A stretch of DNA of 36,612 bases, taken from positions 1 to 36,612 of the forward strand of contig NZ_JAHENT010000035.1 of the NCBI RefSeq assembly GCF_018609725.1. The letters are read 5' to 3'. The first letter of the stretch is position 1, and each line of letters opens with the position of its first letter. Positions 2 through 6,385 of this stretch are shown here, in pieces. A model generated the notes under the pieces. It made no database searches, had not been told where the DNA came from, and saw nothing but the letters and a program-made list of their open reading frames with translations. Made by a program: the position numbers and the translations under genes. This DNA is from Methanohalobium sp. (lineage in GTDB: Archaea > Halobacteriota > Methanosarcinia > Methanosarcinales > Methanosarcinaceae).

Positions 2-586
2 ATGTCTAAACGAGATAACTGCAAACGCAAATCTCAATTTATACCTATAAGTGAAACAAGAGGGTATTGGGAACCAAGTAACAAATGGAAAAGATACGAC
101 AAAGCGCTGGAGAAAGCACTACATACCAAACGAGAACAGACAAAGTTGGGTATGTTTACGATAGCAAACTATCTTTGCAGAAACTACGATAAAATCCTAA
201 TGGGTGATTATACTCCATCGAAAGAAGTTTCACCGCATAAAAAAGCAAATCGCAGTATCTTAAATCAAACTCTCATCGCAAAATTGCGCGGAACAATTGA
301 ATGGGTTTGTGAAAGATCAGGAAAAACATTCAAAAAAGTTGATGAGAAAAATACAACAAAAAAATGCTGTATTTGTGAAGATGTAGAAAAGAAGGATCCA
401 GATGTAAGAACTTTTACCTGTAAAAAATGCGGTCAGACCATTTCAAGAGATATAAACAGCGCTGTAAATATTGCTAAAAAAGAAATGCATTTGTCTGGCA
501 CGGACTACAAAGGTAATCTCAAAGAACCTTTGTATATTGCATATTGGAAATACAATAACTCGAAAATAAATATGCAAACGAATTAA
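2..586 (+). CDS. tnpB: TnpB (IS200/IS605 OrfB), 3' part, Fanzor-like active site
   Basis: RNA-guided DNA nuclease of the IS200/IS605 group, C-terminal part only; the frame is open to the window edge, so the true start is probably upstream. Residues are numbered from the ATG at 2. The end carries the family zinc ribbon (C122/C123, C125, C140, C143) and the RuvC-III motif RDINSAVNI (D150). At the place where classical TnpB has the RuvC-II glutamate (as in the 3874 copy, VFEDL), this protein reads LMGDY (G68-D69). An acidic residue instead lies just before the zinc ribbon (KVDEKNTT, E115), where the other copy has VNPNYTS. This is the relocated-glutamate layout known from eukaryotic Fanzors and a TnpB subgroup. 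The D of RuvC-I is not in the window. Family call is firm; the rearranged-site reading rests on motif alignment by eye. Confidence 0.88.
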   Translation: MSKRDNCKRKSQFIPISETRGYWEPSNKWKRYDKALEKALHTKREQTKLGMFTIANYLCRNYDKILMGDYTPSKEVSPHKKANRSILNQTLIAKLRGTIEWVCERSGKTFKKVDEKNTTKKCCICEDVEKKDPDVRTFTCKKCGQTISRDINSAVNIAKKEMHLSGTDYKGNLKEPLYIAYWKYNNSKINMQTN

Positions 587-710
587 ACGAGAAAGATGAT
601 ACTTTCTCACCTAAGTTTACATCATTTTATGTAAATAGGAGTGCGGAAAGCAGGGATTACAACAACGATGCTGATGTAGGTGGACCAAAATTTGCCGATT
701 TTGGTCTGTT
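587..710 (+). ncRNA. Candidate guide (omega) RNA / right end of the first tnpB element
   Basis: Immediately after the tnpB stop there are three perfect small hairpins: 589-595 with 602-608 (gagaaag/ctttctc), 616-622 with 629-635 (tttacat/atgtaaa) and 683-690 with 699-706 (gaccaaaa/ttttggtc, followed by a T-rich run). TnpB elements encode their guide RNA at the 3' end of tnpB and beyond, so this is the expected place for it. The last hairpin could equally be the transcription terminator or the subterminal hairpin of the element's right end. The exact 3' border of the element cannot be set by eye. Confidence 0.45.
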
Positions 711-737
711 TTAAATTATTAATCAAAAATTTAATCT

Positions 738-3864: not shown

Positions 3865-3873
3865 GTGGAGTCG

Positions 3874-5214
3874 ATGGTACGTAAGGATGATCAAAACTGC
3901 AGGAATTTGAGGTTCAGAATTCATCCCACTCCTGAACAGGAGAAAAAACTGAATGAAACACTGGAGTGCTGCAGACTAATCTGGAACCATCTTCTATCTA
4001 TCAAAGTAGATTTATACGAAAGATTCGGTCTTTCTGTAAAAAGATCAGAACTAGAAAAACTCCTGAAAAATCTGGATTATCCTATACATTCATCAGTAAG
4101 ACTGGATGTATTCCAGCGATTGTGTTTTGCTTATGACAAGTTCTTCGATGATTTGGAAAAAGGTAGGCTGAAGAATACAAAACCTAAAAAAGGAATGTTC
4201 GTCAAGAGAAAAAATGTTCCATGTGGAAATAATTCATCAGGATTTATCAAATATGATGGAATTCTTCCGAAAGCCCACCCCAAATTCAAGAGTAAAGAAG
4301 ATTTCAGTAGTTTCAGATATAAACAGCATGGGAACGGATGGCGTCTGGATGGAAACTGGTTGCATCTATCCAAGATAACCAGTAAATCAAATCTCATCAA
4401 GATTGACATCGATAATCTGCCAAATGGCGAACTGAAGACCTGCACTCTGAAAAAGGAAGGCAAACAATGGTTTGCCTATCTGACCGTAGAGCTACCGGAT
4501 AATCCGGTTCCATCTACTCCAGAAAACGCTGTAGGCATCGACCTTGGACTGAAATCTTTTATAACTACATCAGATGATGATTTTGTCGAACCACCGAAAT
4601 TCCTCAGGAAAGCTGAGAATAGGCTTGCTAAAGAACAGCGAAAATTGTCGAGAATGAAATTCAGATCAAACAACTATAACAAGCAGAAGCAAAAAGTGAA
4701 CAGGATTCACAGGAAAATCGCCGCTGCAAGAAACCATTTCTCGCATTGCCTGAGCAAATTGTTGGTGGAGAGATACGACCTGATTGTATTTGAGGATTTA
4801 AAAATAAAAAATCTTGTCAAGAACAACAAATTGGCTAAATCCATTTCGGATGTTGGCTGGAATAAACTGATCCAGCATGTGACTTATAAAGCTGCTGAAA
4901 GAGGTAAAATAGTGGACAAGGTCAATCCTAATTATACTTCTCAGGTCTGCTCTCATTGTGGAACTAAGAAAAAAGAAAAACTGAAACTGGAAGATAGGAC
5001 ATTCTACTGCAGTAATTGTGGTCTGGAAATGGACAGGGACCTCAACGCTTCAGTCAACATACTGACAAAATCATCGTATTATGATCCATCAATGCATACC
5101 GTGGGGCTCGCGGGAATGAACGGCTGTGGAGATGGTACCTCTACGACTGGTCTCGATATCAGTTCGCAAGTACCGTCCATGAATCAGCAAATGCTCAACC
5201 TCGTCAAAGGTTGA
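3874..5214 (+). CDS. tnpB: TnpB (IS200/IS605 OrfB), complete, canonical active site
   Basis: RNA-guided nuclease TnpB, apparently full length. An in-frame GTG at 3865 would give 449 aa, but ggtggag at 3864-3870 lies just before the ATG at 3874, so I prefer the ATG (446 aa). Numbering from the GTG: N-terminal helix-turn-helix and wedge region 1-220 (FRIHPTPEQEKKLN start), RuvC-I GIDLG (D226), bridge-helix region 250-295, RuvC-II VFEDL (E310), zinc ribbon CSHCG...CSNCG (C362, C365, C382, C385) and RuvC-III DRDLNAS (D392). All three acidic residues are present, so it looks catalytically intact. There is no TnpA (Y1 transposase) beside it, i.e. an IS1341-type arrangement. Its right end abuts the remains of an NSS transporter gene. 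Confidence 0.93.
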   Translation: MVRKDDQNCRNLRFRIHPTPEQEKKLNETLECCRLIWNHLLSIKVDLYERFGLSVKRSELEKLLKNLDYPIHSSVRLDVFQRLCFAYDKFFDDLEKGRLKNTKPKKGMFVKRKNVPCGNNSSGFIKYDGILPKAHPKFKSKEDFSSFRYKQHGNGWRLDGNWLHLSKITSKSNLIKIDIDNLPNGELKTCTLKKEGKQWFAYLTVELPDNPVPSTPENAVGIDLGLKSFITTSDDDFVEPPKFLRKAENRLAKEQRKLSRMKFRSNNYNKQKQKVNRIHRKIAAARNHFSHCLSKLLVERYDLIVFEDLKIKNLVKNNKLAKSISDVGWNKLIQHVTYKAAERGKIVDKVNPNYTSQVCSHCGTKKKEKLKLEDRTFYCSNCGLEMDRDLNASVNILTKSSYYDPSMHTVGLAGMNGCGDGTSTTGLDISSQVPSMNQQMLNLVKG

Positions 5215-5262
5215 GGCTCTCAAGAGAATTCCACGAGTTTACACTACTCGTGAGAGCAGTCA
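5190..5262 (+). ncRNA. Candidate guide (omega) RNA 3' end and IS right end
   Basis: Two perfect hairpins sit exactly where TnpB guide RNAs end. The first (ctcaacct 5194-5201 with aggttgag 5208-5215) overlaps the tnpB stop codon. The second (cacgagt 5232-5238 with actcgtg 5246-5252, 7-base loop) is the likely subterminal hairpin of the right end. NSS-like coding sequence begins again at about 5265, which sets the element's right border within roughly ten bases after the second hairpin. The following bases (agagcagtcagattgg on) would then be the guide segment. The 5' end of the RNA, inside tnpB, cannot be located by eye. Confidence 0.6.
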
Positions 5263-5264
5263 GA

Positions 5265-6385
5265 TTGGCATGGACGAGTGCTGCAGATACTGGAACATAT
5301 TTCATAGGTTCTGTGTTACAAAGAACCGGTTCACCGTGGGAATTGGGTGGATTCCCTATTGAAATACTTATAAGCCTACGGTTGTCTGGTTCATAACATG
5401 GTTGATCGAAATCAAAGGTGTTCTGAAAGGAATCGAGAGAGCAAACAAATTTTTCATACCAATCATCTGGCTACTTATCATTGTTCTGATAGTCAGAGCA
5501 CTAACACTTCCCGGAGCACTTAATGGTATAGATTGGTATCTCAAACCTGATTTTGGAGCGATTCTAAACCTTGATGTCTGGCTTGCTGCCTTTGGACAGA
5601 TATTCTATACACTCAGTCTCGGTATGGCTATAATGGTGGCCTATTCAAGTTATTTACCAAAAAAGAGTGACATAGTCAACAATACATTCATTGTTACACT
5701 GGCAAATGCGGCTTTCAGTTTCCTTGTCGGTTTTGCAGTATTTGGAACTCTTGGATACATGGCTCATGCCAAAGGTGTAGGTATTGAAGAAGTAGTTGCG
5801 GACAGTATAGGACTTGCATTTATTGTATTCCCTGAAGCCCTGAGTCTGTTACCGGGACTTAAAGTTTTGACAGCGGTAGTATTCTTCATATGTATATCGA
5901 TTGCAGGTCTGTCTTCATTGATATCTCTTGTTGAAGCGTTCTCTTCATCGTTAATGGACAAATTTGAACTCAGCAGAAAAAAGGCGGTAAACATTACTAT
6001 CGGTATAGCATTTGCAGGGAGTCTGATTTATGCCACTCGAGGTGGTCTTTACTGGCTGGATATTATAGACCATTTCATCAATGTTTACGGACTGCTGGTT
6101 GTTGGTGTGCTTGAAGCAGTGGCAATCGGCTGGATATTTGGTGCGGACAAATTCAGAGAATGGGCAAACAATTACTCTGATATAAAAGCTGGTAAATGGT
6201 GGAATTTCAGCATCAAATTCCTTGTTCCAGTAGTTCTGACTATATTGATAATACAGGAAACAATATCAAATTTGCAGGCTCCCTATGGAGGAGACCTGAT
6301 GGCTGCAGCACTTGGTGTAGTTGTAATGGTGGTTGGTATGATTCTTGCGGCTATATTGACATCGGTTAGAAAGGATGTGGTATAA
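5265..6385 (+). pseudogene. NSS-family sodium symporter, truncated and frameshifted
   Basis: Remains of a sodium:neurotransmitter symporter (SNF/NSS) gene for amino acid uptake. Intact members are ~450-510 aa with 11-12 spans; here the coding similarity starts near the end of the third span (AWTSAADTGTYF) directly after the IS right end, so the first ~125 residues are gone. The first piece runs in one frame to ELGGFPIEILISL (to 5378). The frame must then change at 5379-5380 to continue as VVWFITWLIEIKGVLKGIE; the first frame stops at 5394 and the second is closed upstream by a stop at 5360. A single-base loss explains this. From 5402 (TTG) the remaining ~327 codons are open and include LSLGMAIMVAYSSYL typical of the sixth span. 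Almost certainly non-functional as a transporter. Confidence 0.85.

What the first reader, a model, noticed from the sequence alone, without database searches (positions are those of the whole stretch)
203..350. TnpB with a Fanzor-like relocated catalytic glutamate
The copy at 2-586 has G68-D69 at the RuvC-II position where the other complete TnpB in the window has E310. It has E115 (KVDEKNTT) just before the zinc ribbon, where the other copy has VNPNYTS. Relocation of the RuvC-II glutamate toward the zinc ribbon is the hallmark of eukaryotic Fanzors and a minor TnpB branch. An archaeal genome with both active-site types within 4 kb would be a useful natural comparison.
Basis: partly seen in the sequence, partly recalled or inferred. 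Interest (0 to 1): 0.6.

Follow-up and report, generated by a model that had tools for sequence, protein, structure and literature searches.

The report
TnpB nuclease with relocated catalytic glutamate
A jumping-gene RNA-guided DNA-cutting enzyme (TnpB) in a salt-loving methanogen carries one of its three cutting residues in the unusual place used by the eukaryotic Fanzor enzymes, and it belongs to a small family, spread over archaea and four bacterial phyla, that offers a natural test of how such active sites are rewired.

Summary
Window 2-586 is the last 194 residues of a 434-residue TnpB cut by the contig edge; full copies sit elsewhere in the genome and in a sister species. The RuvC-II glutamate position holds Gly (G68), and a glutamate (E115) lies exactly six residues before the zinc ribbon, the published 'Ealt' position of Fanzors and some TnpBs. 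In 67 TnpBs compared, 44 have canonical Glu and no Glu at the alternative site; 23 have Gly plus the alternative Glu; none has both.

The full copies show RuvC-I 'DPN', giving D205-E355-D390. Homologues with DPN + Ealt occur in Bacillota, Chlamydiota, Chloroflexota and Cupriavidus, several beside an intact IS607 serine recombinase. The family shares a right-end terminus GAGCGG/GTGCGG before the guide. In the window the element ends at 646; an orthologous empty site in the sister species shows recent insertion at a GG core without its own transposase.

It is an IS607-derived TnpB with a rearranged but intact triad, probably an active RNA-guided nuclease. It is not a Fanzor or 'pro-Fanzor' (those are DPG), and trees do not join it to them. 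One origin for all Ealt proteins is rejected (p-AU 0.01), so the glutamate probably moved more than once.

The parts
2..586 (+). 3' part (last 194 codons) of an IS607-derived tnpB; 5' part lies beyond the contig edge
   Evidence: ORF; PF07282 E 1.2e-16; 97% identical to full-length 434-aa copy in G000:C106
203..208 (+). G68-D69: canonical RuvC-II glutamate position, occupied by Gly
   Evidence: alignment with canonical TnpBs and homologues
344..346 (+). E115: relocated (Ealt) RuvC glutamate, six residues before the first zinc-ribbon Cys
   Evidence: invariant in 16/16 homologues; aligned to Fanzor2 L79 Glu; index
365..430 (+). TNB zinc ribbon, CxxC (365-376) ... CxxC (419-430)
449..451 (+). 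D150: RuvC-III aspartate
   Evidence: invariant in alignment; index
457..646 (+). predicted omegaRNA (reRNA) scaffold: end of tnpB plus right end
   Evidence: folds at -46.2 kcal/mol, z -4.9 against shuffles; sister copy z -6.6
610..639 (+). right-end hairpin (2 nt shorter in its 3' arm than in the other copies)
   Evidence: comparison of copies
641..646 (+). right-end terminus GTGCGG; last GG = recombination core; element boundary after 646
   Evidence: copies diverge after this point; shared terminus G[AT]GCGG in 12 of 14 family loci, 1.07 expected
647..666 (+). host flank that would serve as the guide
   Evidence: empty site in sister species continues with the same flank
3865..5214 (+). 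comparison: complete canonical TnpB (D226, E310, D392), TnpB-only element
   Evidence: Pfam, residue indices

Best explanation
Window 2-646 is the right-hand part of an IS607-derived element whose TnpB is an RNA-guided DNA endonuclease with a rearranged RuvC triad: RuvC-I Asp (D205 of the full copy, DPN), a glutamate moved from the end of the fourth RuvC strand to just after the fifth (E115 here, E355 in the full copy), and RuvC-III Asp (D150/D390). By analogy with characterised TnpBs, the 3' end of the tnpB transcript plus the right end (to GTGCGG, 646) forms the guide scaffold and the downstream host flank the guide; the nuclease would cut the matching empty site next to a G-rich motif (GGG inferred), so that repair copies the element back. 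The elements here keep only the end of tnpA and probably move with a recombinase supplied in trans. Shown: residues, conservation, family, element ends, empty site, purifying selection. Inferred: guide RNA processing, cleavage, motif, trans-mobilisation.
For: Full copies read WIALDPNHKN...IGDYTP...VDEKNTTKKCCIC...RDIN. D-Ealt-D and canonical Gly are conserved across Bacillota, Chlamydiota, Chloroflexota, Pseudomonadota and archaea. NCBIfam guided_TnpB 149.5 bits against a cut-off of 100. Fold: TnpB ternary complex 8h1j E 4.5e-16 and Fanzor2 9b0l E 9e-13 for the homologue model (pLDDT 85). IS607 TnpA intact upstream in six family loci, C-terminal remnant in Methanohalobium copies and Clostridium. 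Empty site in G001 at 99% flank identity, inserted at a GG core. Left ends of the four sites with a recovered left end all read G|GG. Shared right-end terminus. Structured 3' RNA. dN/dS 0.18 between the two intact orthologous copies. One TnpB of a RuvC-II-rearranged clade (RII-r5) is reported active in guided dsDNA cleavage (PMC10278001).
Against: No biochemical data for this family. One sister copy has a nonsense codon, and the window copy has a 2-nt change in its right-end hairpin, so individual copies may be dead. The Glu-to-Asp distances were not measured. The homologue model has pTM 0.55, so domain packing is uncertain. Identity to characterised TnpBs is low (17% in the fold alignment).
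Confidence: 0.8

Rival explanations
1. Nuclease-dead, domesticated TnpB (TldR-like guided repressor): loss of the canonical glutamate means loss of cutting, and E115 is incidental.
For: The canonical Glu is replaced by Gly in every family member; TnpB-derived guided transcription factors (TldR) are known (PMC13418256, abstract listed).
Against: E at the alternative site is invariant together with both aspartates across five phyla; the alternative position is catalytic in Fanzors (SpuFz1 E541 with D383, D606; PMC10432273); copies are multi-locus and recently mobile, not single-copy and syntenic.
Confidence: 0.1
2. True pro-Fanzor: an archaeal branch of the DPG + Ealt clade from which eukaryotic Fanzors descend.
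For: Same relocated Glu, same proline in RuvC-I (DPN against DPG), same IS607 association; SpuFz1 has Asn two residues after its catalytic Asp (D383, N385; PMC10432273). Joining DPN with DPG is not rejected (p-AU 0.07).
Against: RuvC-I is DPN in every member that covers it, not DPG; in the trait-masked tree the DPG sequences (L79, L175, L176) fall on the other side of a 98/98 branch; published pro-Fanzors are cyanobacterial (PMC10711439).
Confidence: 0.12
3. Decaying relic: a broken copy with no function, its residues surviving by recent ancestry only.
For: One sister copy has a nonsense codon, one copy has an internal deletion joining the tnpA remnant to the zinc ribbon, tnpA is a remnant in all copies.
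Against: Open frame in window, L032 and L048; dN/dS 0.12-0.29 between copies; insertion absent from the sister species.
Confidence: 0.1

Closest known systems
Ealt TnpBs with D-hydrophobic-G RuvC-I (Yoon et al. 2023, PMC10711439), including archaeal ones found here in Methanosarcinaceae (L049, L050, L052, L068)
   Same: Glu six residues before the zinc ribbon, Gly at the canonical site, TnpB fold; lie on the same side of the main split in the trait-masked trees
   Different: RuvC-I is DIG, not DPN; 22-26% identity; IS607 recombinase beside them not looked for
Pro-Fanzors and Fanzor2 (DPG + Ealt, IS607), e.g. mimivirus L79, PDB 9b0l
   Same: Relocated Glu aligned residue for residue, proline after the RuvC-I Asp, IS607 transposon
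   Different: DPN instead of DPG; about 24% identity over the compared RuvC part; no tree support for common descent
Canonical TnpB (ISDra2, 8bf8/8h1j; window 3865-5214)
   Same: Overall fold, RuvC-I and RuvC-III Asp, zinc ribbon, right-end guide RNA layout
   Different: Canonical Glu at the end of the fourth strand, no Glu before the zinc ribbon
IS607 TnpBs guided by RAGATH-18-derived RNAs (ISFba1, 8iaz; PMC11061315)
   Same: IS607 association, fold (E 1.2e-15)
   Different: Only tRNA and rRNA matches to Rfam at gathering cut-off around the tnpB genes here; IS607_TnpB NCBIfam model only 41.7 bits against a cut-off of 350

Membership tests
TnpB superfamily | RuvC + TNB zinc ribbon protein scoring as guided TnpB | tested here: met
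   NF040570 149.5 bits (cut-off 100), PF07282 60.9 bits (cut-off 26.3)
Ealt (rearranged RuvC-II) TnpB | Glu six residues before the first zinc-ribbon CxxC, no Glu at the canonical site | tested here: met
   EKNTTKKCCIC; Gly at canonical site, 16/16
Ealt (rearranged RuvC-II) TnpB | Ealt spatially completes the catalytic site | tested here: inconclusive
   Topology right in AF2 model of a homologue; no coordinates available to measure distance
Fanzor / pro-Fanzor | RuvC-I DPG | tested here: not met
   DPN in all 15 family rows of the tree set
Fanzor / pro-Fanzor | Common clade with Fanzor2 | tested here: inconclusive
   DPG rows fall elsewhere; joint clade p-AU 0.07; only three Fanzor-like rows, no cyanobacterial pro-Fanzor available
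IS607 element | Serine recombinase tnpA upstream | tested here: inconclusive
   Met in L075, L116, L117, L118, L119, L131; only a C-terminal remnant in Methanohalobium
IS607 element | Insertion between matching dinucleotides, no TSD, no TIR | tested here: met
   Empty site ..ATACTGGGAAAGCAGG.. against right junction GTGCGG|AAAGCAGG; other copies xG|GG at left end
TldR (nuclease-dead TnpB) | Broken RuvC triad | tested here: not met
   D-E-D present and conserved at D205, E355, D390
Guide RNA (omegaRNA) system | Processed RNA ending at the right end | not testable with these tools
   only predicted structure and conserved terminus

The most novel reading that the evidence does not exclude
The DPN + Ealt IS607 TnpBs are a separate family in which the catalytic glutamate moved independently of the Fanzor lineage (or of the other Ealt lineages), so the same active-site rewiring, with the same RuvC-I proline, arose more than once in RNA-guided nucleases.
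Probability: 0.4. Interest if true: 0.65.

Novelty: new variant of a known kind. Interest (0 to 1): 0.5.

Why it matters
[quoted passage not shown] The DPN family carries the same relocated glutamate and RuvC-I proline in archaea and four bacterial phyla, in small proteins of about 430 residues. It lets one ask directly whether the relocated glutamate alters collateral single-strand cutting, a property proposed to explain why this type of nuclease succeeded in eukaryotes. One archaeal genome holds both site types 3.3 kb apart.

Tried and rejected
Finding the 5' half of the window copy on another contig: C75 and C65 are the two halves of a different copy (66-nt identical overlap), and no contig end matches the window start, so L032/L048 stand in for it. 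DNA search of plasmids: no match. Viral contigs with the close family: no family member. RAGATH-18 or other Rfam RNA beside tnpB: none, only tRNA/rRNA in flanks. Plasmid and phage records nearest to Fanzor2 L79: all fetched ones whose sites could be read proved canonical. Measuring catalytic distances: model coordinates are not given. Reading the PNAS 2023 survey of TnpB/Cas12 diversity: not held, so whether the DPN family falls in one of its RII-r clades could not be checked. Covariation in the right-end hairpin: copies too similar, and one internal pair is not kept, so no claim is made.

Full report
Observation. Window 2-586 (+) encodes 194 residues to a stop without internal stops. The window is a complete contig, G000:C35, so the gene is cut by the assembly, not by nature. 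Residues are as reported: G68-D69 at nt 203-208, E115 at 344-346, zinc-ribbon CxxC at 365-376 and 419-430, D150 at 449-451. The second TnpB, 3865-5214, has D226, E310 (VFEDL) and VNPNYTS before its zinc ribbon.

Full gene. The genome holds a full copy on contig C106 (L032, 97% identical to the window part), two halves of another copy on C75 and C65, and an internally deleted copy on C67. A genome of the same genus (G001) has copies L048 and L067. The likely protein is 434 aa (MSFRNKDKF...). Its RuvC-I reads WIALDPNHKNLLTAYD; the catalytic triad would be D205, E355, D390, with Gly308 at the canonical RuvC-II position.

Family. One scan of 84,980 species with an alignment that included a Cupriavidus plasmid homologue returned 31 loci. 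They lie in Syntrophomonadaceae, Clostridium, several Bacillaceae, Chlamydiota, Anaerolineaceae, Epulopiscium, a Mollicutes MAG and Cupriavidus, where there are many copies. Within 393 Halobacteriota genomes the family was found only in the two Methanohalobium genomes; the next best matches are at about 32% identity, E 1.8e-30, and those of this kind whose sites were read are other TnpBs. In the alignment the canonical-site Gly, the alternative Glu, the zinc-ribbon Cys and the RuvC-III Asp are invariant in all rows, and DPN is kept in every row that covers RuvC-I. Epulopiscium L129 is degenerate: it lacks DPN and the zinc ribbon.

Is the swap real? Over 67 TnpBs the two states exclude each other: 44 with Glu at the canonical site and another residue at the alternative one, 23 with Gly at the canonical site and Glu at the alternative one. 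The 23 include four archaeal TnpBs with DIG in RuvC-I (L049, L050, L052, L068) and mimivirus Fanzor2 L79 (PDB 9b0l) with DPG. HMMER alignments put the L79 Glu (NVNEYLTTKTC) on the family Glu. E115 matches the published Ealt expression exactly (PMC10711439).

Structure. A model of Clostridium L107 (46% identical to the window part) has mean pLDDT 85 and pTM 0.55. D197 ends a strand (193-198), the canonical Gly300 ends strand 296-301, E347 follows strand 341-346 directly, and D382 starts helix 381-392. This agrees with the description of Fanzor and related catalytic sites: Asp on the second strand, Glu on the loop between fifth strand and TNB domain, Asp on the helix (PMC11423790). Best solved folds are TnpB 8h1j (E 4.5e-16), with ISFba1 8iaz (E 1.2e-15) and Fanzor2 9b0l (E 9e-13) further down the list; viral predicted folds include IS607 TnpBs of phages and many giant-virus transposases. 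The fold does not tell canonical from rearranged, and no coordinates were available to measure distances.

Phylogeny. With the DPx, canonical and alternative-site columns masked, the DPN family is one group (100/99). In the first tree it joins the archaeal DIG + Ealt group (100/99). After adding viral sequences, including two DPG + Ealt ones (L175, L176), the DPG rows group together (96/93) on the other side of a 98/98 branch. Constraint tests: all Ealt as one clade rejected (p-AU 0.0098); DPN + DPG not rejected (0.074); DPN + archaeal DIG + DPG not rejected (0.22); DPN + archaeal DIG not rejected (0.40). The glutamate therefore probably moved (or moved back) more than once; whether the DPN and Fanzor lineages share one move is open. 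The trees rest on 211-220 RuvC columns and contain no cyanobacterial pro-Fanzor.

Element. IS607-type serine recombinases with an N-terminal MerR-like helix-turn-helix and a resolvase domain lie directly upstream of tnpB in L075, L116, L117, L118, L119 and L131. Methanohalobium copies keep only about 45-55 C-terminal codons of tnpA, and G001 has a decayed longer tnpA (L149, eight stops). Intact but more distant IS607 recombinases are present once in G000 and three times in G001, so mobilisation in trans is possible. Left ends read GG-AATAAAACAG and right ends AGGAGTGCGG. The window right flank is intact in G001 at 99% identity without the element: ATACTGGGAAAGCAGG. This places the right boundary after 646 and the core at GG. 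The base before the left GG is G at four of four sites with a recovered left end and at the inferred window site, so GGG is the predicted adjacent motif.

Guide RNA. Window 457-646 folds at -46.2 kcal/mol, z -4.9, and the equivalent region of another copy gives z -6.6. Copies share everything up to GTGCGG and differ after it. The terminus G[AT]GCGG occurs within 300 nt downstream of tnpB in 12 of 14 family loci against 1.07 expected from Markov shuffles; control windows 500-800 nt downstream have 2. The loci are related, so the nominal probability is not meaningful, but the pattern holds across phyla. The window copy has lost two bases in the 3' arm of its terminal hairpin.

Function. dN/dS between the intact orthologous copies L032 and L048 is 0.18, so the protein has been kept. 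By analogy with characterised TnpBs, the protein would process the 3' end of its own transcript, carry the downstream flank as guide, and cut empty sites; one TnpB of a RuvC-II-rearranged clade has been shown active (PMC10278001). All of this is inference for the present family.

Known or new. Ealt TnpBs and Fanzors are known, and so are IS607 TnpBs. What I did not find described is the DPN + Ealt family, which both published search expressions (DPG and D{not P}G) would miss (PMC10711439). The PNAS 2023 survey of TnpB and Cas12 diversity was not readable here, so prior inclusion under one of its rearranged clades cannot be excluded. Hence: new variant of a known kind, moderate interest.

Noticed in passing
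L175, L176 (viral contigs IMGVR_UViG_3300035158_000070 and 3300032516_000187): DPG + Ealt Fanzor-like proteins with Ile-Pro-Lys instead of Gly around the canonical site.
   Followed up: partly
L182 1515-2573 (viral contig IMGVR_UViG_3300031707_000001): TnpB with DPG in RuvC-I, Ser-Asp-Asp at the canonical site and a Glu seven rather than six residues before the zinc ribbon: possibly a further site variant.
   Followed up: no
L180, L194, L198 (viral contigs): TnpBs with D-L-G RuvC-I and Ealt that fall in separate parts of the tree; L194 and L198 have an NAD-type RuvC-III. They probably drive the rejection of a single Ealt clade.
   Followed up: partly
L045 1-177 (G000:C72 edge): The same genome holds a contig-edge fragment of another Ealt TnpB (RIIEIDESYTSQDCCNC) resembling the archaeal DIG type.
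   Followed up: no
window 647-715 and L160 2300-2800 (minus strand): The element sits near the 3' end of a gene that in the sister species reads on as ...RGYWESRGYNNDADVGGPKFADFGLF; by eye it resembles a molybdopterin-type oxidoreductase, not tested.
   Followed up: partly
window 5215-6385: The canonical TnpB element lies beside a sodium-dependent-transporter-like gene (5402-6385, by eye) whose start is missing or scrambled, as if interrupted by the insertion.
   Followed up: no
L035 (G000:C67), L149 (G001): Internally deleted relatives of the element: tnpA remnant fused to the zinc-ribbon end of tnpB (L035), and decayed tnpA followed by a tnpB tail and intact right end (L149).
   Followed up: partly
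L118-L128, L130, L133, L134: Cupriavidus necator A5-1 carries 14 fetched, closely similar copies of a DPN + Ealt IS607 element with tnpA, all with left end GGGGCAAG and most with right end GAGCGG: a ready source for testing activity and target motif.
   Followed up: partly
G000, whole genome: 61 TNB-domain matches in a 2.09-Mb genome of 161 contigs, many at contig edges: TnpB elements are probably a main cause of its fragmentation.
   Followed up: no
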